Made by a program: the position numbers and the translations under genes. This document shows positions 2,118 to 56,029 of a stretch of 64,000 bases of DNA, one piece after another; position 1 is the stretch's first letter, and each line of letters begins with the position of its first letter. The notes beneath the pieces were generated by a model. That model searched no databases. It was given only the letters and a program-made list of their open reading frames with translations, and was not told where the DNA came from. The DNA is from Tetracentron sinense (Eukaryota > Streptophyta > Magnoliopsida > Trochodendrales > Trochodendraceae): the NCBI GenBank assembly GCA_015143295.1, contig JABCRI010000989.1:124001-188000 (forward strand). The letters run 5' to 3'.

Positions 2118-5100
2118 CTCGTCATCGTAATGGATATTTGTTATCCAGCCTCCTTCTTTCAGCCTTTCAATCTGATAAACTCCTTCATCAATGAAATTCT
2201 CAATTTCTTCTCTTCTCTTCCCTGTAAAAAATAATTTAGGGAACCCACAAAACCAACTCTTATGTTTGAGAAATTAAAGCCAAACCACTAGGTGTAAGCA
2301 AAAGCACCTTTAGTAGAAGAAACTTTATCCAGCCAGTTTCCGTAGATGCTATCAAGCAATGCAGTCAGCATCTCACAATTTTCTTTTGACATGTTTTTGC
2401 GCATGAGTTGATCCCCGGCGCTTTTATATTTACCAATTCTTTGCACTTGTGGTTCAATTCCCACTTTTTCAAGAACACCTGCAAAAAATTTGGTGCTATT
2501 TCATTGCATGTTACTGAAAACTATGAGCAATAAGTACGACCAGTAGCATACCTTTTCACATAATGATATGCTTGGATCCATATAAGTTATTCAATGGCAT
2601 TAGAAGACATGCAAAAAGCTAGAGCACGGCAATAAGAGTATCATTACAAGTCTATGGGGTACGCATGAGGGCACATTAGATATCCTTACAGAAGTAATAC
2701 CACATATAGTTTTGATAGTTGTCTGTCTTTTCAGGATTACGTCGCGTATGTCTTTTGGCCAATCAATATATTTTCTTCCTTTTCTTGTACATATGACATA
2801 TGATGTGCTGGCAGTGGCACTACAGACGTGTAAGATAGACACACTGAAAAGAATCTTACATTTTGACACCCCACACCAAAACAGTCTATAGTGTGTTTAG
2901 AGCAGCATGGACATGTTATATGTAATCAACTTTTGATATTTGGCATATTATCCCACAAGGAATCTAGTTGCAGAGAAAAAGTTGCTCGTCACATGAGCAG
3001 GATGGCATACCATACTAATTCTCATAATAAAGATTAGAAAACGTGTAGATGGTGGCATCACACCTGAAATAAGATCAATGATGAAAAGGAGCCAACTACC
3101 TTGCAGGGTGAGCTACAATGGACTGGTAGGTGGTGGCCATAAACACGCATGGGCTTCATAACAGAAATCAGTGAGTGGTCCAGTAGGGAGAAAAATGTAA
3201 GGTTTCAAAAGAGCAATCACCTGTGAAATACATGACGCAGCACTCTAAATGGAGCTTCTACTTGAGAAGCAAAATAATTTTAGGAGCACCATGTCTCAAC
3301 AAACCATCTAGAATTCATGTGTCAGAACAGAAGGGCAAGAAACTTCCAATTCCTTTCTTTCTGTCTCATACCTATGTAATAAAACCGGGATACACCATTG
3401 GATGGGTGTCACCAAGATCACCTTTAAGGTCAAAGTTCATCCAGACCAGATGGTTGTAGGAAAAAAATCTCTGAATTATAATGAATGGCCCAAAAGAGGG
3501 AAAAAAGGTGTTCTTAGATAGAATGGTAACAATCATCCAATCTGTTTGGTTTTCAACTAGGAACATCTTTGTGGTGGGAGACTCTTAACGGTTAGGCACA
3601 GTCCCACCTGCATGTAAAATTTGTATACAGCAAAAGAGATTCTTCCCGGCTTCCCATCTTGAAGCAACTATTTCTGAACAACATATTAATGTGACCCAGA
3701 ACAGAATACCTTCTTTTTGTCCATTTCATATGCAATTATGGGAGAACTAGCAAAATTGACTTACCCCCGAGAAATGATGCTTGAACCGTCAAACCGTACA
3801 AAGCAAAATAAGCACTAGGAGGAGCATATAGCTCTTCACAAGCACAACCAAGGTAATACTCTTTCTCCCCACAAACTGAGAAATAGCCCACAATGAATTT
3901 ACCTGCACAAAAACATTTATTATCAAACTATGGTTTATCAATATCAAAAAATGCAATGCAAGGATTTGACCAGATGAAGATGTAAAATAACAACTGAGCT
4001 AGTTTAGCAGAAGATGTCAATCAAGTAGGGTAAACTATAATATTTCAAATTAAGGTCTATGCAATGTGGAGTGCAAAGGAAGATCTAAACTGCTCCATAC
4101 TATCGAAGGTAAAGATACCATGCGAATTGTACCACTGAAAGTGAGACACTAGAAAATTGGAATCAATTTATACAAGTGAAAAGAAACATCCGAAAGTTAA
4201 CTAGCATCATGTCTACCACACAAGTATGTACAAATCATCATGTGGAATATTTGCAAAAAGCAGTCACGCACAGGTGATGAGTAGATAACCCGCCACCCAC
4301 ACACACACACAAAAGCTTAGTCATGGTTTAAAAATTCGTCGAAATCATTACACAACGGTCATAAAGTAACAGTTTCAGCTAGTTTTTCAACCATGTTTCA
4401 AGCGAGTTTAACAATCATGCTTTAGTAAACTAGCAGTCATTAAAATTATGTTGTTACCTGACTTCCTGAAATTTAGTATATGCCTCCGTATCTCTTCAAC
4501 TTTGCCCCACCCACAGCTCAGGGGTTCTATCTGAAGATAGACACCAGAGATACGAGGATCGTATGCTGCTTTTGAGAAATTTTCGCAAATTTGAGGCAGA
4601 GATAGTCCTGAAGAGAAACGGCTCTTTAGCTGTTCAGATATCTGAAACAAAACAGAATGACAAATAATCAAGCTAACAACAGAGAGATTTAAAGCTGTTG
4701 AAATCAAATTTGATCCAAAAATCGAAACTTTCTTGAGTTCGCAGTCAAAATCTGTAAACCGCATTCCAATAATATAAGAACCTGGCCTCGAAGCTTCATT
4801 GAAAGTACGCTTCCCTTCCGAACACGCTCCCATGGGAATGCAAAGAGCATTCGAAGCTTCACGACAAAGCTCATCCATCCATTAATCTCCTTGAACTCAA
4901 AATCACCGCTTGGATAATCATCATTTGATCCTACCAAACTTCCATTAACATCCACAGACCTAGTTTCGGTTTCAGAAGAAGAGGATTCGTCTTCCTTCTT
5001 CGAAACCTCCTCATCCTTAGTTTCAGAAGACGATTCTAGGGCTCGAACTGATAAACCCCTTTGATGAACTGAATTACGAAGAAATCGAAGATGAATTTGA

Positions 5101-6134: not shown

Positions 6135-6560
6135 ATGTTTGGTTGCCAAGAAAATAGGTGAAAATATGAAAAAGAAAAGAAAATTTTGGATTTCTGACAC
6201 AAATCTTAGTTGTGTCTTGTCTAATTTTTTTTTTACATGTTTTCACTTAGTTATCGTATGATTGTCACTATTGAGAAAGTGCAAAAAAAAAAAACAAAGA
6301 AATGTGTTTTCTTGCACATGAAACACTAGGAAAGTGCAAGAAAACTCATGTTTCTTCACTTTCTCACCAAATGTTGTGTTTGGTTGCCGAGAAAATTTGA
6401 AAAAGAAGAGAAAAGAAACCTTCAAATTTTCCGTCGTTTGGTTATCTAGAAAATTAGAGAGAAAGTTATCGAGAAAGTAATTTCTCTTGTTTGGTTGCTA
6501 AGAAAATATATGGAAAAAGTATATTTGTTTTTTTTTTTACCACAATAATCATTCTTAATT
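6135..6560. repeat. Harbinger left end with repeated subterminal motif
   Basis: The motif GTTTGGTTGCCRAGAAAAT or close variants occurs at about 6137, 6380, 6436 and 6491. A short inverted element with GTGCAAGAAAA arms lies between (6280-6350). Subterminal copies of the end sequence are usual transposase-binding sites in this superfamily; that role is inferred here. Confidence 0.55.
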
Positions 6561-18124: not shown

Positions 18125-23416
<5,292 letters not shown>

Positions 23417-25837: not shown

Positions 25838-27304
25838 ATGGCTGCCTCCTCAAACCTATCAAGAATAGGCCTTGCTGGCCTTGCCGTCATGGGCCAAAAT
25901 GTTGCCCTCAACATTGCTGAGAAAGGTTTCCCCATTTCTGTTTACAACCGGACGACCTCCAAAGTTGATGAGACAGTCGAACGAGCCAAACAGGAAGGAA
26001 ACCTTCCCCTATTTGGCTTCCATGATCCTGAATCTTTTGTTCATTCAATCCAAAAACCTCGGGTCATAATCATGCTTGTTAAGGCTGGGGCTCCAGTTGA
26101 CCAAACCATTAAAACCCTATCTGTTTACATGGAGAAGGGAGATTGTATTATTGATGGTGGTAATGAGTGGTATGAGAATACTGAGAGGAGAGAGAAAGCC
26201 ATGGCTGAATTGGGTCTGCTCTATCTTGGAATGGGAGTTTCTGGTGGTGAAGAGGGTGCCCGACGCGGACCCTCTATGATGCCTGGAGGGTCTTTTGAGG
26301 CCTATAAGTACATAGAAGACATCCTTCTTAAGGTGGCTGCTCAGGTTCCTGACAGTGGCCCTTGTGTTACTTACATAGGCAAAGGAGGATCTGGCAATTT
26401 TGTTAAGATGGTTCACAATGGGATTGAATATGGTGATATGCAGCTAATCGCAGAGGCTTATGATGTACTGAAATCAGTCGGGAAGCTCTCGAATGAGGAA
26501 CTACACCATGTCTTCTCAGAGTGGAATAATGGGGAGCTTCTAAGCTTCTTGATCGAGATCACTGCTGATATTTTTGGAATTAAGGATGATAAGGGAGATG
26601 GATATTTAGTTGACAAGGTTTTGGACAAGACTGGCATGAAGGGTACCGGTAAATGGACCGTTCAGCAAGCTGCTGATCTATCGGTTGCAGCTCCCACTAT
26701 AGCATCGTCTTTGGATTCAAGGTTCCTCAGTGGGTTGAAGGAGGAAAGAGTTGAAGCTGCCAAGGTCTTCAAGTCAGGTGGCTTTGGAGACATCTTGACT
26801 GATCAAGCTGTCGATAAGAAGAAGTTGATCGATGATGTTAGGCAAGCTCTTTATGCATCCAAGATATGTAGTTACGCGCAGGGGATGAATCTGATCCGTG
26901 CAAAGAGCATCGAGAAGGGATGGGACCTGGAGTTGGGGGAGCTGGCTAGGATTTGGAAGGGGGGCTGCATTATCCGTGCTGTATTCTTGGACCGTATCAA
27001 GAAGGCCTACGATAGAAACGCAGACCTTGCAAGCCTTCTCGTGGATCCGGAGTTTGCAAAGGAGATCATTGAGCGACAGTCTGCTTGGCGAAGAGTTGTC
27101 TGTCTTGCTATCAACTCGGGTATCAGCACCCCGGGTATGTCTGCTAGTCTTGCTTATTTTGATACTTACAGGAGGGATAGGCTGCCAGCTAATTTGGTCC
27201 AAGCCCAAAGAGATTATTTTGGAGCTCACACCTATGAGAGGACTGATATACCAGGATCCTTCCATACCGAGTGGTTTAAGATTGCTAAGCAGTCAAAGAA
27301 CTAA
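25838..27304 (+). CDS. PGD: 6-phosphogluconate dehydrogenase, decarboxylating
   Basis: A 488-residue protein encoded without introns, full length for the plant family. It oxidises and decarboxylates 6-phosphogluconate to ribulose 5-phosphate with NADP+, the second oxidative step of the pentose phosphate pathway. Visible features are the Rossmann dinucleotide site GLAVMGQNVALNIAEKGF (13-30), NRT at 37-39 (the arginine favours NADP+), the substrate segment SGGEEGARRGPSMMPGG (135-151), the active-site block GKGGSGNFVKMVHNGIEYGD with Lys190 and Glu197, and the signature VLDKTGMKGTGKWT (261-274). There is no N-terminal extension, so it is a cytosolic-type isoform. The C terminus reads SKN rather than the peroxisomal SKI/SKL type, which argues against strong peroxisome import. 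Nothing is broken; this is the best-supported complete gene in the window. Confidence 0.97.
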   Translation: MAASSNLSRIGLAGLAVMGQNVALNIAEKGFPISVYNRTTSKVDETVERAKQEGNLPLFGFHDPESFVHSIQKPRVIIMLVKAGAPVDQTIKTLSVYMEKGDCIIDGGNEWYENTERREKAMAELGLLYLGMGVSGGEEGARRGPSMMPGGSFEAYKYIEDILLKVAAQVPDSGPCVTYIGKGGSGNFVKMVHNGIEYGDMQLIAEAYDVLKSVGKLSNEELHHVFSEWNNGELLSFLIEITADIFGIKDDKGDGYLVDKVLDKTGMKGTGKWTVQQAADLSVAAPTIASSLDSRFLSGLKEERVEAAKVFKSGGFGDILTDQAVDKKKLIDDVRQALYASKICSYAQGMNLIRAKSIEKGWDLELGELARIWKGGCIIRAVFLDRIKKAYDRNADLASLLVDPEFAKEIIERQSAWRRVVCLAINSGISTPGMSASLAYFDTYRRDRLPANLVQAQRDYFGAHTYERTDIPGSFHTEWFKIAKQSKN

Positions 27305-51320: not shown

Positions 51321-51474
51321 TAGGGATGGTTAACGAACAAGGTGCTCGCAAACAGCTCGAGCTCAACTCACTAAAAGCTCAAGCTCGTTCATTAATATAT
51401 TTAGTAAACAAGCCAAGCATGAGTTTGATTTTTGAGCTCGTTTAGTTAATGAGCCGAGCTTGAACACATCCCTA
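51321..51474. mobile_element. Short hAT MITE of the GAGCTCG family
   Basis: TAGGGATGGTTAACGAAC at the left and the complement of TAGGGATGTGTTCAAGC at the right, with CAGCTCGAGCTC inside. A trimmed relative of 32933-33485. Confidence 0.6.
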
Positions 51475-52596
51475 CTCGTCTCGCTAAAAGGTCAACTCAA
51501 TTATATATATATATACTTAAAATATTTTTAAATTACTAAAATATTTAAGTTAAGTACATAATTAACATACTTAAGTGGCAAAAAATGGAACTTTCAGCCT
51601 TGAGGCTTGTTATGCTAAGTTACTTGGCATAAAAGTTGTAGAATAAGGTGGTGAATTTAAATGATTTCATCTTATTAAATGGTTGTATCTATACTACTCC
51701 TATATAGCAATTGGTATCCACGTGGCACACTCCATTGCTCTTCATTCCCTTCAAATTAGTGCCATGTGGCATACCCTTCAATTAATAATTTTTTAACATA
51801 TGGACTGTGAACCCCAGACATTAAATATCCGTCTCCAACCATACCCATCTCTTTCTCTCTCTCCTCACATCTTCCTATCTTCCACAAATTCGTCCGCCCA
51901 AAGCGTCTCTCTCCCTCCATTAAACACCCTCCCCACATCAATTTGGCCCCACTCACTTTCAATTACACTCTTGCAATTCAGATCCCCTTGTCTACGGCCC
52001 TCCTCCTTCCATCTCTTCATTAATAAATAAGGCTTTAGATAGTAGATACATCTTCCCAACACTTCTTCTACCTTCACCCCTCTATGGCACGTCTACCTCC
52101 TTTCTCTTCACTTATAAAGTCTTAGAAAGTCCTTTTCGCTTCTCTCCTCTACGACTAAGGAAAAAAAGGGATAAGAAATGGTATAATCAATCGTTGGGAG
52201 GTTATTGAGATTGGGATCGAGTGGCATTGGCAAGGAATTTACCCCCAACCTTTTTGTGCTATTAATCTTGCTATTTTCACCGATTTGTGATTTTTCCCTG
52301 ATTTTTTTTAAAAAAATAGATTGATTGTTTGGATGAACTTAGTGTTTTCAAATCTAATTTATTTGTGTTGATTTAGTTCTCCTCTGCATCAATGATCAAG
52401 AATCTGGTTTCCCTCGGTGACATTATGAATCATCGCATGCTATTTTTTTTTCCTTTTCAAATTTTCAAACTCAAACCCTACCTTTCCCTTCTTGGTCCTA
52501 CGATTGGTTTTATCATTTTTAGTTCCTATATTTGTGTTTTCTCTTTAAAGCTCAATTAGGCAAGTTCATGATTGATGATTTCACTACTTTATTTTA

Positions 52597-52955
52597 TTAT
52601 CAACAAAAATAATTCTTACAAAACTTTATATCATCCCCCAAATCTATTTGCAATTCCTTGTTTTTTTTTCAATTTTCAAATAACTTTTCAGATATTTTGG
52701 CATGTTGCCTTCTCTGTGTAGGTGAAGCAAATAGTAGTGGCTACGCTTGCTCAATCTGTTATGGATCATTCAGATGATGCAAAGGTGCCCCTTAATCCCA
52801 TTTGATTGGTACATCACTTTATTTTTTGAGCACTAAAATAATTTTTATAGAACTTTTATCATCCCCCATTTCTATGTGCATTTCCTTGTTTTGTTCAATC
52901 TTTCAAACAACATTTCAGATATTTTGGCATGTTGACTTCTCTGTGTAGGTGAAGC
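52597..52955 (+). repeat. Internal duplication in Helitron B
   Basis: Two diverged copies of about 130 bp (CATCCCCCA..., then TTCAGATATTTTGGCATGTT and CTTCTCTGTGTAGGTGAAGC) each end at the same AG acceptor-like site. Confidence 0.7.
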
Positions 52956-53405
52956 TCTCCAATCAGCCATTTCATGTGTGGGTTTTTCTTATTTTGTGTT
53001 TTCATTTTAAGTTAGAAGTATTGATGTGAATTTCATTTTGTTCTTTGCTCTATTATACATAATCTATTTTGGACTCTGGAAATAATAAAATATTATAACA
53101 TTTGTGAGCCTATGCAATGATGCAAATTATAGTTGCATCTATTGAAAGTGATGGGTATTTATTGCTTACTTCCATTACTTTAGTTATTTATTATCTTCTT
53201 CAACCATTCATTTGTCAAGAGTTTGAGTTTCAGTGTTCCTTTTTACTTATCAGAGTTGAACATTTCATTAATGGGTTTCATTTGTTTATTGATTTTGCAG
53301 TTTTGTGTATGAGCAAATGCGATCCGCATATTCTAGTCAGTATTTGACAAACATGGTTTTGAAGGAATCTTAATTTTAACTATATCCTATGTTCTTCCCT
53401 GACAG

Positions 53406-54582
53406 ATGAAGATTTGAAAAAAAGGAGAGGAGGCCATTTCTAACACACTTCTTCCCACTATGTAGGCATTTTCCAATATGTTCTTTGGCGAATGGGGTGA
53501 CAAGAGCCAGGTAAGCAACATATTGGAAGCTCCGTGTATGTGCATACATTGAGGATCACAATTGGTATTGCTTCATCACCATGTTAAAATGAGTATAACA
53601 TGATTTTTCATCTAGCTACAATTGGATTGGCTACAACTGAGAACCCTCTAGGCGTGGTGCTTGGTGGAATCATGTAAGTTTTGTTCCATATACGTGCATG
53701 TGTGTGTGTGTGTGTGTGCTAAGTATGAGGGTGGAGGGATTGGAAGAAGGATGCTCTATTTGTTCCTCATATGCTACCTTTTCTGTGCATGAAACGAACT
53801 GTTCTAAATGCCCATACATTTTGTGAACTACCAAATGTGCATTTTAGTCATTTTGAACATTTGAATTTGGCCGTTTGCATACTTAGACTACCTTTTACTA
53901 TATCCACATTTTAAATCTCAAACTTTACTAGACCATTGACCTGGAAACTAATGCTCTAGCTTATTTGATTCAATCCTTGACCAGGAAAGAACAAACCCAA
54001 TGCCCTTGTCGATTGAACCGTTGACCCGCTTGATCAGGGTGAATCATTGCAAAGTAGCTATGTCCATGTATGTCACATTTATAGTTTCAATCAAACCCTT
54101 GGGTGAGAAAAAATAGCTTTTGAATCCCAAACTTGGCAATCCAAATGTATGCCAATCACTGTGAGAGATATGTGAGTGTTTCTAGTAGGTGTTTGTATCC
54201 ATTATTTTGCTTGCGAAGATGTTTTCATTCAAGGATGGAAATTCTATATAGCATCTAAATTGGGAATGGAATCATTGATTCAAGGTTTTGATGTGGGCAC
54301 CTCAGAATTCTTTGCAAAACAGATATGGAATAGGTTTACAACCATTCTATATGACATCTTATTGTGTCCTTAACATTGATTGATGATTCATATGTTTTGT
54401 ACCACCTTCACATTGCAATTTAGAAATATTGTGTGAAATCACATTAACGTTATTGATGGACATATACTACATGAGTACTGAAAATTGTCTCATTTTTAAT
54501 TTTTCTGCAGAGGACAAGCATTTATTACTGATGTAGCTGTTCTTGGGGGGAAAGAGCATGACATTACTATTTTTATTAGTAT
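53406..54582 (+). pseudogene. Captured GDT1-like (UPF0016/TMEM165) gene fragment
   Basis: Exon-like pieces in order: 53406-53510 (DEDLKKRRGG..., then AFSNMFFGEWGDKSQ, donor at 53511), 53612-53673 (LATIGLATTENPLGVVLGGI, donor AT|GTAAGT) and 54511-54582 (GQAFITDVAVLGGKEH). They match the second half of Arabidopsis GDT1-like proteins such as At1g25520, including the E-W-G-D-K-S metal-transport signature of this Ca2+/Mn2+ transporter family. Decay is clear: a stop and frameshift between the acidic linker and AFSNMFF, and the acceptor before CTAGCT has changed from AG to AT. The first ExGD repeat and the C-terminal membrane segments are missing. The preserved introns show capture at the DNA level. 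Confidence 0.8.
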
Positions 54583-55228
54583 GTAAGTTATATGATTTTT
54601 GCTTACTGATGTTGACCTCAGTGAACTTCTGCCCATAAGGGTTGATTTACTTTGTGTTGTTTCCAATTTATTAATACTGAGTAAGTTTCTATACAATGAT
54701 CCCTATATTCTTTTAAGCATTTAAGTGTCTGCTTTTAATAAAATTTAAAGACAATGATTGGAAATTTCTATACAATCGTCCCTTTTAATAAGTGGTTATT
54801 TTCTTGGTCAACTTGAAGTTGCAGGTTGGAAGGCTTAGCCAATAGACATAATAGAAAAAACGAGTCATGTAAGCAATCATTGTCTTTTGTTGGGTTTTAT
54901 TTCTTAGCTAAATTTGATTTAATTATTCCTATACATTGTTCTTAGTTTGATTGTTTAGTGCCTCAAAGCTGAATTTATCTACTGTCATTTGAGTCAACTA
55001 TTGATGATAGATATCATCAAATTTATAGATTTTTAATGATCTCTTCTCAATTAAACTAATCTCATTGTAATTCTTATTTTTATATGATAGTAGTTATTTT
55101 TGACTAAATTCTATACCTGATTCAGCGATTATTTAAGTATTTTTAGTACTGTAATTAGTTTTGCGTGATAGAGGACAGGCGTTGGGCATCCTTTTGTCTA
55201 AAATTCTAAAGGACACAAGTGCCTCTTA

Positions 55229-55352
55229 TTCTTCCAAAATTTGTCTTTCAGTCGGGTTATCATTCCTTCAATTTACACACATGAATTCTATTCTTCCAAA
55301 ATTTGTCTTTCAGTCGGGTTATCATTCCTTCAATTTACATACATGAATTCTA
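55229..55352 (+). repeat. Tandem duplication, 2 x 62 bp
   Basis: TTCTTCCAAAATTTGTCTTT begins at 55229 and at 55291. The copies are almost identical, so the duplication is recent. Confidence 0.9.
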
Positions 55353-55574
55353 TGAGAAATCTTTGTATTACCGGCCTTCCTCTTTTCCTTGGGATATCTA
55401 CTCCTCAGTATTTTTGATGATTTTAAATTTTCTTCTCATCATGGACGTTCACTCCCACCCGGGATGGGTTAGTTAAATCCTTAAAACCCTCATTCTTCTC
55501 CGAGCAATTGAAATACCAAATGGGTACAATTGACGCCCCAGCCAAGTTCAATCGCCCCAAAAAGTCAACAAGTG

Positions 55575-55700
55575 ACTCTTTTAATCACCATTAACTGTGG
55601 TTAAGATTCACTAACACTTAGTATTCAACAATTTAACTTTATTTTAAAAACAATATATTTTTAAAAAAAACCGTTAACCGGGGTTAAAAGGGGGCTCTGT
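55575..55700 (-). repeat. Dispersed repeat (GTGAATCTTAACC family) inside Helitron B
   Basis: Contains the complement of AGTGAATCTTAACCACAGTT and ends in GGGGTTAAAAGGGGG. It lies close to the Helitron 3' end and is therefore younger than, or was carried along with, the Helitron. Confidence 0.5.
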
Positions 55701-56029
55701 GAATGCCATTGATCTCTCAAGACTCATTGATGATTACAAATAATTGTTTTTCTTTATCATTGCCTTCATTCATGTCTATGTTACTACCTGTGCATCGCAC
55801 GGGGTGTTTGCTAGTATATATATAAACTAATCTATCTTAGTTTAACTAAGCTCGTTAAAAGCTCGAGCTCGACTCAAGACCCACCCCTAACCCTATCTTA
55901 TGGATGATATCGATTCACTATATATGTTAGTTTTCCACATGACTAGAAAGATGCCATCACAGCCGAGCTTGGACAAGTCGGTCCACTTCACTTATGAACA
56001 CAACCTACTTTTTGTTGGCCCATGGTGGG

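What the first reader, a model, noticed from the sequence alone, without database searches (positions are those of the whole stretch)
51688..55814. Helitron carrying exons and introns of a GDT1-like transporter gene
The ends meet all Helitron rules (TC start, GTGC/GCAC hairpin, CTAG end, A-T insertion site), and the interior holds three ordered pieces of the UPF0016 domain, one with its EWGDKSQ motif, at genomic exon spacing. This is gene capture by a rolling-circle transposon. The captured part is in the element's own orientation, so chimeric transcripts are possible.
Basis: partly seen in the sequence, partly recalled or inferred. Interest (0 to 1): 0.75.

Follow-up and report, generated by a model that had tools for sequence, protein, structure and literature searches.

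The report
Helitron carrying decayed GDT1 gene fragment
A rolling-circle jumping gene in what looks like a plant genome carries a broken, intron-containing copy of part of an ion-transporter gene stitched to scraps from other places, a well-known kind of gene capture.

Summary
Window 51688-55814 is a 4,127-bp non-autonomous Helitron in a 1.16-Gb genome. Both ends are family ends: 39 of 43 match rows for the first 313 bases start at base 1, and 30 of 44 rows for the last 125 bases end at the last base. Related repeats continue across 51687/55815, with 12-19 extra bases there. Inside lies a GDT1 (PF01169) segment, 53314-54564, with introns; its nearest apparently complete gene is C4:44461851-44473772 (85% identical over 1,238 columns). 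Corrections: (1) the segment is a decayed pseudogene (two frameshifts, a lost splice acceptor, a deletion, a truncated end); (2) GDT1 stops near 54564, not 54582; (3) the element is a mosaic, GDT1 being one of 12 segments I list, ends included; (4) the only other full copy found, on C23, shares both flanks at about 98.7%, so it is the same insertion; (5) related GDT1 pieces lie at further loci, two of them with intact Helitron 3' ends of this family. Transcription was not testable. Helitron gene capture is long known in plants; this is a well-documented new member.

The parts
51688..51792 (+). Helitron 5' terminal region (TCTATACTACTCC..., preceded by A)
   Evidence: 39 of 43 match rows start at base 1; most of the rows stop at base 99-106
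51895..52448 (+). mosaic piece 1 (T/C-rich leader-like sequence; source gene not identified)
   Evidence: 83-85% to C8:9829405, C9:44723349, C4:48399829; 52223-52448 also matches other loci
52504..53219 (+). mosaic piece 2, with an internal direct repeat (84-86%) at about 52586-52728 / 52816-52955; source not identified
   Evidence: C6:22681905-22682609, C3:57380020-57380894, C3:60257469-60258297, C12:1778441-1779297 match parts of it
53219..53314 (+). mosaic piece 3, 96 bp
   Evidence: 95% to C4:13361009-13361105, 85% to C14:24889196; no match to it in the C4:44.46-Mb gene region read
53314..54564 (+). captured GDT1 (UPF0016, PF01169) segment with introns, sense orientation, pseudogenic
   Evidence: aligned to C4:44471.9-44473.6 kb through introns, p-distance 0.148 over 1,238 columns
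53404..53460 (+). GDT1 exon remnant (DEDLKK..RRPFL), 2-bp insertion frameshift; the exon's end and most of the following intron are deleted (limits approximate)
   Evidence: alignment to genes B and C
53466..53510 (+). GDT1 exon AFSNMFFGEWGDKSQ, followed by GT
53612..53673 (+). GDT1 exon LATIGLATTENPLGVVLGGI, donor GT kept, acceptor CAG changed to CAT
54511..54564 (+). GDT1 exon remnant (GQAF...VLGG), 1-bp insertion frameshift, truncated at the junction
54556..54733 (+). mosaic piece 5
   Evidence: 92% to C14:41578156; 88-89% to C7:9342720, C6:4621720, C617
54774..55237 (+). mosaic pieces 6-8
   Evidence: separate matches at element bases 3087-3172 (C8:40.9 Mb), 3193-3398 (C7:41.8 Mb, C15, C11), 3354-3550 (C6:29.1 Mb)
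55227..55353 (+). 62-bp tandem duplication (2 copies here, an extra copy in the C23 version)
55309..55814 (+). Helitron 3' region and terminus; hairpin 55787-55803, end CTAG then T
   Evidence: 30 of 44 rows end at the last base; hairpin
51321..51687 (+). left flank: dispersed repeat interrupted by the Helitron
55815..55878 (+). right flank: continuation of the same dispersed repeat

Best explanation
This is a non-autonomous Helitron of a family with at least dozens of copies in this genome. It inserted between an A and a T inside an older dispersed repeat, presumably mobilised in trans by RepHel proteins of autonomous Helitrons elsewhere in the genome. During earlier rolling-circle or repair events its lineage took up a stretch of a GDT1-family transporter gene at the DNA level, exons and introns together, in sense orientation, along with other fragments. 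Junctions with short shared sequence suggest template switching or end-joining at capture or later. Related copies kept different parts. The window copy has since decayed and cannot encode GDT1. Shown: ends, insertion into a repeat, captured introns, an apparently complete donor-like gene elsewhere, disabling changes, GDT1-bearing Helitrons at other sites, Rep-domain genes in the genome. Inferred: mobilisation in trans, the microhomology route, one capture rather than several. Not tested: transcription.
For: Ends and family. The joined flanks align across the junction in 4 of 4 loci examined; separate flank searches list C8:16956, C6:42800, C21:32248 and C7:42926 kb in both. GDT1 gene at C4:44461851-44473772 and paralogue from C18:15795469 on (PF01169 85.3 bits for the C-terminal half of the C4 gene). 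Intron-through alignment, p=0.148 to the C4 gene over 1,238 columns against 0.234 to the C18 paralogue over 338. Disabling changes. Helitrons at C14:41711 and C21:28835 kb carry GDT1 exon pieces and intact 3' ends; homology between the two loci ends 17 bases past CTAG. A 9-bp deletion is shared by the window copy and the C14, C21, C769 and C10 copies against genes B and C. At least 151 Helitron_like_N matches in the genome, some in open frames over 1,100 codons. No ORF of 150 codons or more lies in the element.
Against: The four related sites hold 12-19 extra bases at the junction that the window lacks, so they are paralogous, not a clean allelic empty site. The site's flanks read TA|...|TA, so this site alone does not exclude a 2-base target duplication. 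The hairpin alone is not energetically exceptional. Tree support for grouping the GDT1-bearing Helitrons is weak (0.68), and three-way site patterns among the window copy, the C4:13.36-Mb relic and the C4:44.46-Mb gene are nearly even (85/73/68), so single versus repeated capture is not settled. The C4:13.36-Mb relic showed no recognisable family ends in the 20 kb read (3.9 kb of it upstream), and the C10 copy none in 9 kb.
Confidence: 0.95

Rival explanations
1. The element is two or more nested or adjoining mobile elements, or a Helitron that later received insertions, so that the GDT1 piece was not captured by this Helitron itself.
For: The interior has separate genomic matches for many pieces; the C4:13.36-Mb relic carries mosaic piece 3 and a downstream piece around its own GDT1 copy but showed no Helitron ends in the 20 kb read.
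Against: C14 and C21 Helitrons carry GDT1 upstream of the same kind of 3' end. No inverted repeats of 40 or more bases in the element (shorter ones were not sought there).
Confidence: 0.12
2. The GDT1 piece is functional: the element is a chimeric gene or a regulatory (siRNA) source acting on GDT1.
For: Sense orientation, one exon with intact motif and donor site; Helitron captures are reported to be transcribed in maize and to act as siRNA reservoirs (passages of PMC13317346).
Against: Two frameshifts, a lost acceptor, a deletion across an exon end and intron, truncated 3' end. About 15% divergence from the C4 gene would limit siRNA matching (inference).
Confidence: 0.05
3. Ordinary duplicated pseudogene fragment with Helitron-like ends by chance.
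For: The hairpin energy alone is not rare (12 of 200 shuffles).
Against: Dozens of match rows begin and end at exactly these bases, and a dispersed repeat is split at these points.
Confidence: 0.01

Closest known systems
Helitrons carrying GIGANTEA pseudogene fragments in Lolium perenne (PMC2702305; abstract and outline seen)
   Same: 5'-TC and CTAG-3' borders, sub-terminal hairpin, A/T insertion site, multi-exon fragment of a host gene as a pseudogene, related fragments both associated and not associated with Helitrons.
   Different: The gene is GDT1 rather than GIGANTEA; here a whole genome could be searched for the donor-like gene and for sister copies.
Gene-capturing non-autonomous Helitrons of maize and rice (PMC2575219; passages seen)
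   Same: Multiple exons captured from host genes; the paper says that copies made by transposition lost some portions, so that Helitrons retain different portions of the same capture event, as appears to be so here.
   Different: Different species and captured gene; no GDT1 was named in the passages seen.
Helraiser / Helibat (PMC4778049; passages seen)
   Same: TC/CTAG termini, a palindrome 11 bases before the 3' end, AT target; source of the read-through capture model.
   Different: Autonomous reconstructed animal element; read-through transduces DNA that flanks the 3' end, whereas here GDT1 lies 1.25 kb inside the 3' end among other pieces.

Membership tests
Helitron (canonical, plant type) | 5' end TC, inserted after A | tested here: met
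   A at 51687, TC at 51688; same start in 39 of 43 rows; A precedes 12 of 14 end-like sites in fetched loci
Helitron (canonical, plant type) | 3' end CTRR followed by T | tested here: met
   CTAG at 55811-55814, T at 55815; 30 of 44 rows end there; T follows 11 of 11 end-like sites in fetched loci
Helitron (canonical, plant type) | hairpin about 10-12 bases before the 3' end | tested here: met
   7-bp stem, 3-base loop, 11 bases before the end (12 of 200 shuffles fold as well); compensating stem changes among related ends
Helitron (canonical, plant type) | no terminal inverted repeat and no target-site duplication | tested here: inconclusive
   0 inverted repeats of 40+ bases, and the two termini as read are not inverted copies of each other; flanks TA|...|TA leave a 2-base duplication open at this site
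Helitron (canonical, plant type) | RepHel protein in the element or in a partner | tested here: met
   none in the element (no ORF of 150+ codons); at least 151 Helitron_like_N matches in the genome. That any of them moves this family was not tested
Helitron (canonical, plant type) | transposition by rolling circle or peel-and-paste | not testable with these tools
   needs an assay; inferred from family
Gene-capturing Helitron | contains introns and exons of a host gene that exists elsewhere in fuller form | tested here: met
Gene-capturing Helitron | captured segment mobilised with the element to new sites | tested here: inconclusive
   the window and C23 copies are one insertion; C14 and C21 copies share GDT1 plus 3' end at different sites, but their link to this copy rests on a shared 9-bp deletion and a weak tree
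GDT1 / UPF0016 (PF01169) as a working gene | both conserved E-x-G-D-K motif regions in one open gene | tested here: not met
   only the second motif region is in the element, as broken exons; the C4:44.46-Mb gene matches both halves

The most novel reading that the evidence does not exclude
The GDT1 segment was captured once, and Helitron lineages then exchanged 5' and 3' modules around it (GDT1-bearing loci have partly different surroundings), so that this family works as a shuffling system that recombines captured pieces through short homologies rather than by 3'-end read-through.
Probability: 0.3. Interest if true: 0.45.

Novelty: new member of a known kind. Interest (0 to 1): 0.25.

Why it matters
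It is a clean, checkable example of gene capture in an unnamed, probably plant, genome, with a donor-like gene and partial sister copies at hand. Because copies keep different parts, the set could help tell read-through capture from template switching or repair-based capture. It also warns that the GDT1 exons here should not be annotated as a gene.

Tried and rejected
Considered and rejected: the C4:13.36-Mb match as the parent gene. It was the top DNA hit after the self match and the C23 copy, but its motif is altered, the protein search listed only one match there (query 163-192, with stops inside), and it carries non-GDT1 pieces shared with the Helitron, so I read it as a relic. The gene at C4:44.46 Mb matched both halves of the query. 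I call it apparently complete: query residues 97-122 were not matched, and some exon matches run over a stop, probably at their edges. Considered: C23 as a second transposed copy; rejected because both 1-kb flanks match at 98.7% and 98.6%. C769 likewise looks like the same insertion as C14, since homology runs past the 3' end.

Led nowhere: identifying the gene behind pieces 1-2 (reading frames in L047, L049 and L056 gave no protein that I recognised; no family search was run on them); finding the 5' ends of the C14, C21, C769 and C10 copies (not found in the DNA read); naming the species (a guess of Tetracentron gave one unrelated paper in the listing). The PF01169 profile search found 4 places, neither the window copy nor the C4 and C18 genes among them, probably because their exons are short. 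A search for papers holding Helitron and GDT1 found 0 in that library; it says nothing of other literature.

Not done: RNA data, related accessions, dating in years (species and rate unknown), a statistical test of junction microhomology.

Full report
WHERE IT IS. That it is a plant is an inference from genome size, gene content and Helitron type.

THE ENDS. Position 51688 starts TCTATACTACTCC after an A, and 55814 ends CTAG before a T. A search of the genome with the first 313 bases gave 43 match rows, of which 39 start at query base 1; most stop near base 105, which is what a family with a shared 5' end and variable interiors gives. A search with the last 125 bases gave 44 rows, of which 30 end at query base 125 (counts; both include the window and its C23 copy, and the tool calls them lower bounds). 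In fetched loci, A precedes 12 of 14 sites similar to the 5' end and T follows 11 of 11 sites similar to the 3' end. The hairpin (7-bp stem, 3-base loop) ends 11 bases before the 3' end. On energy alone it is not exceptional (12 of 200 shuffles fold as well), but related ends keep it through changed pairs, e.g. CCTGTGC/GCACGGG, CCCGTGC/GCACGGG, CCTGTGC/GCACAGG.

THE INSERTION SITE. The left flank from about 51321 belongs to a dispersed repeat, and the first about 62 bases of the right flank belong to the same repeat. Joined flanks align as one stretch to 4 of 4 related loci examined, L052-L055, so the Helitron sits inside an older repeat. These are paralogous sites. In all four, the copies without the Helitron carry 12-19 extra bases at the junction that the window lacks; that could be a small loss at insertion or variation of the repeat.

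THE SECOND COPY. C23:11152298-11156488 is a full copy, 4,079 of 4,116 aligned bases identical (99.1%), but its 1-kb flanks are also 98.7% and 98.6% identical. It is the same insertion seen twice (other haplotype, or a duplicated segment), not evidence of a second jump.

THE GDT1 SEGMENT. A protein search located an apparently complete GDT1-like gene at C4:44461851-44473772 and a paralogue on C18 from 15795469 on (query residues 97-122 of the C4 gene were not matched, and some exon matches run over a stop, probably at their edges). The C-terminal half of the C4 protein scores 85.3 bits to PF01169 and the two joined window exons 43.2 (cut-off 27). The Helitron segment aligns to the C4 gene through introns: p-distance 0.148 over 1,238 columns, against 0.234 over 338 columns to the C18 paralogue. 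There are four exon remnants: about 53404-53460, 53466-53510 (EWGDKSQ), 53612-53673 (LATIGLA...), 54511-54564. The tblastn search printed no other window match at E below 0.5. Compared with the C4 gene the segment has a 2-bp insertion in the first remnant, a deletion removing that exon's end and most of the next intron, a CAG to CAT acceptor change before the third, a 1-bp insertion in the fourth, and then an abrupt end. It cannot encode GDT1.

A MOSAIC. Whole-genome searches with the rest of the interior show separate matches for many pieces. My list has 12 segments, including both ends and GDT1; together they cover 3,778 of 4,127 bases. Some abut; others are separated by up to about 100 unassigned bases. 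Some pieces also occur in loci with Helitron ends of this family, so not every piece need be a separate capture by this element. At three junctions that could be lined up with both sources there are short shared stretches of about 2-6 bases; this is my reading of alignments, without a statistical test. The genes behind pieces 1 and 2 were not identified.

OTHER GDT1-BEARING COPIES. C14:41711, C21:28835, C769 and C10:9055 kb carry the EWGDKSQ region. C14 and C21 also have intact 3' ends of this family. C14 and C21 are 93-95% alike over 4.4 kb, and their similarity ends 17 bases past CTAG, as expected for copies inserted at different places; their 5' ends were not reached. C769 continues past the 3' end with C14 and is probably the same insertion. 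The window copy and these four lack 9 bases that both complete genes have, which suggests one capture. Against this, tree support is weak (0.68), site patterns are nearly even, and the copies have different GDT1 limits. A further GDT1 relic at C4:13.36 Mb carries two non-GDT1 pieces shared with the Helitron, but no family ends were found in the 20 kb read.

MECHANISM. The element has no ORF of 150 codons or more. The genome holds at least 151 matches to Helitron_like_N (PF14214), some in open frames over 1,100 codons, so possible partners for mobilisation exist. Read-through of the 3' end, supported for Helraiser (PMC4778049, passages), is one route to capture. The internal position and many small pieces fit repeated template switching or end-joining at least as well; this is inference.

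COMPARISON. PMC2575219 (passages) describes for maize that multi-exon captures are copied by transposition and that copies retain different portions. [quoted passage not shown] PMC13317346 (passages) cites about 2,791 such elements in maize. The present element is a new member of that known kind. A search for papers holding both 'Helitron' and 'GDT1' returned 0 in the library searched.

Noticed in passing
window 18125-20455, minus strand: A second complete-looking Helitron of related type, 2,331 bp: A then TCTTTACTACTACTA at 20455, and a hairpin with TTTGCTAG then T at 18125; its 3' end differs from the main element's by 4 of 32 bases.
   Followed up: partly
window 25838-27304, plus strand: A 488-codon uninterrupted reading frame that looks like 6-phosphogluconate dehydrogenase (recognised by eye, no family search run).
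   Followed up: no
window 55213-55336: A 62-bp tandem duplication inside the Helitron with one extra copy in the C23 version, a length difference between the two copies.
   Followed up: partly
L048 (C4:46040000-46049999): Four Helitron 3' ends of this family in the same orientation spaced about 2.6 kb apart, which looks like a tandem array of Helitrons.
   Followed up: no
L047 (C9:44721000-44730000), 6167-6544: Three Helitron 5' ends of the family starting within about 280 bases, in tandem.
   Followed up: no
L031 (C4:13.36 Mb): A GDT1 relic with altered motif and inserted stretches; it carries non-GDT1 pieces also present in the window Helitron but no recognised Helitron ends.
   Followed up: partly
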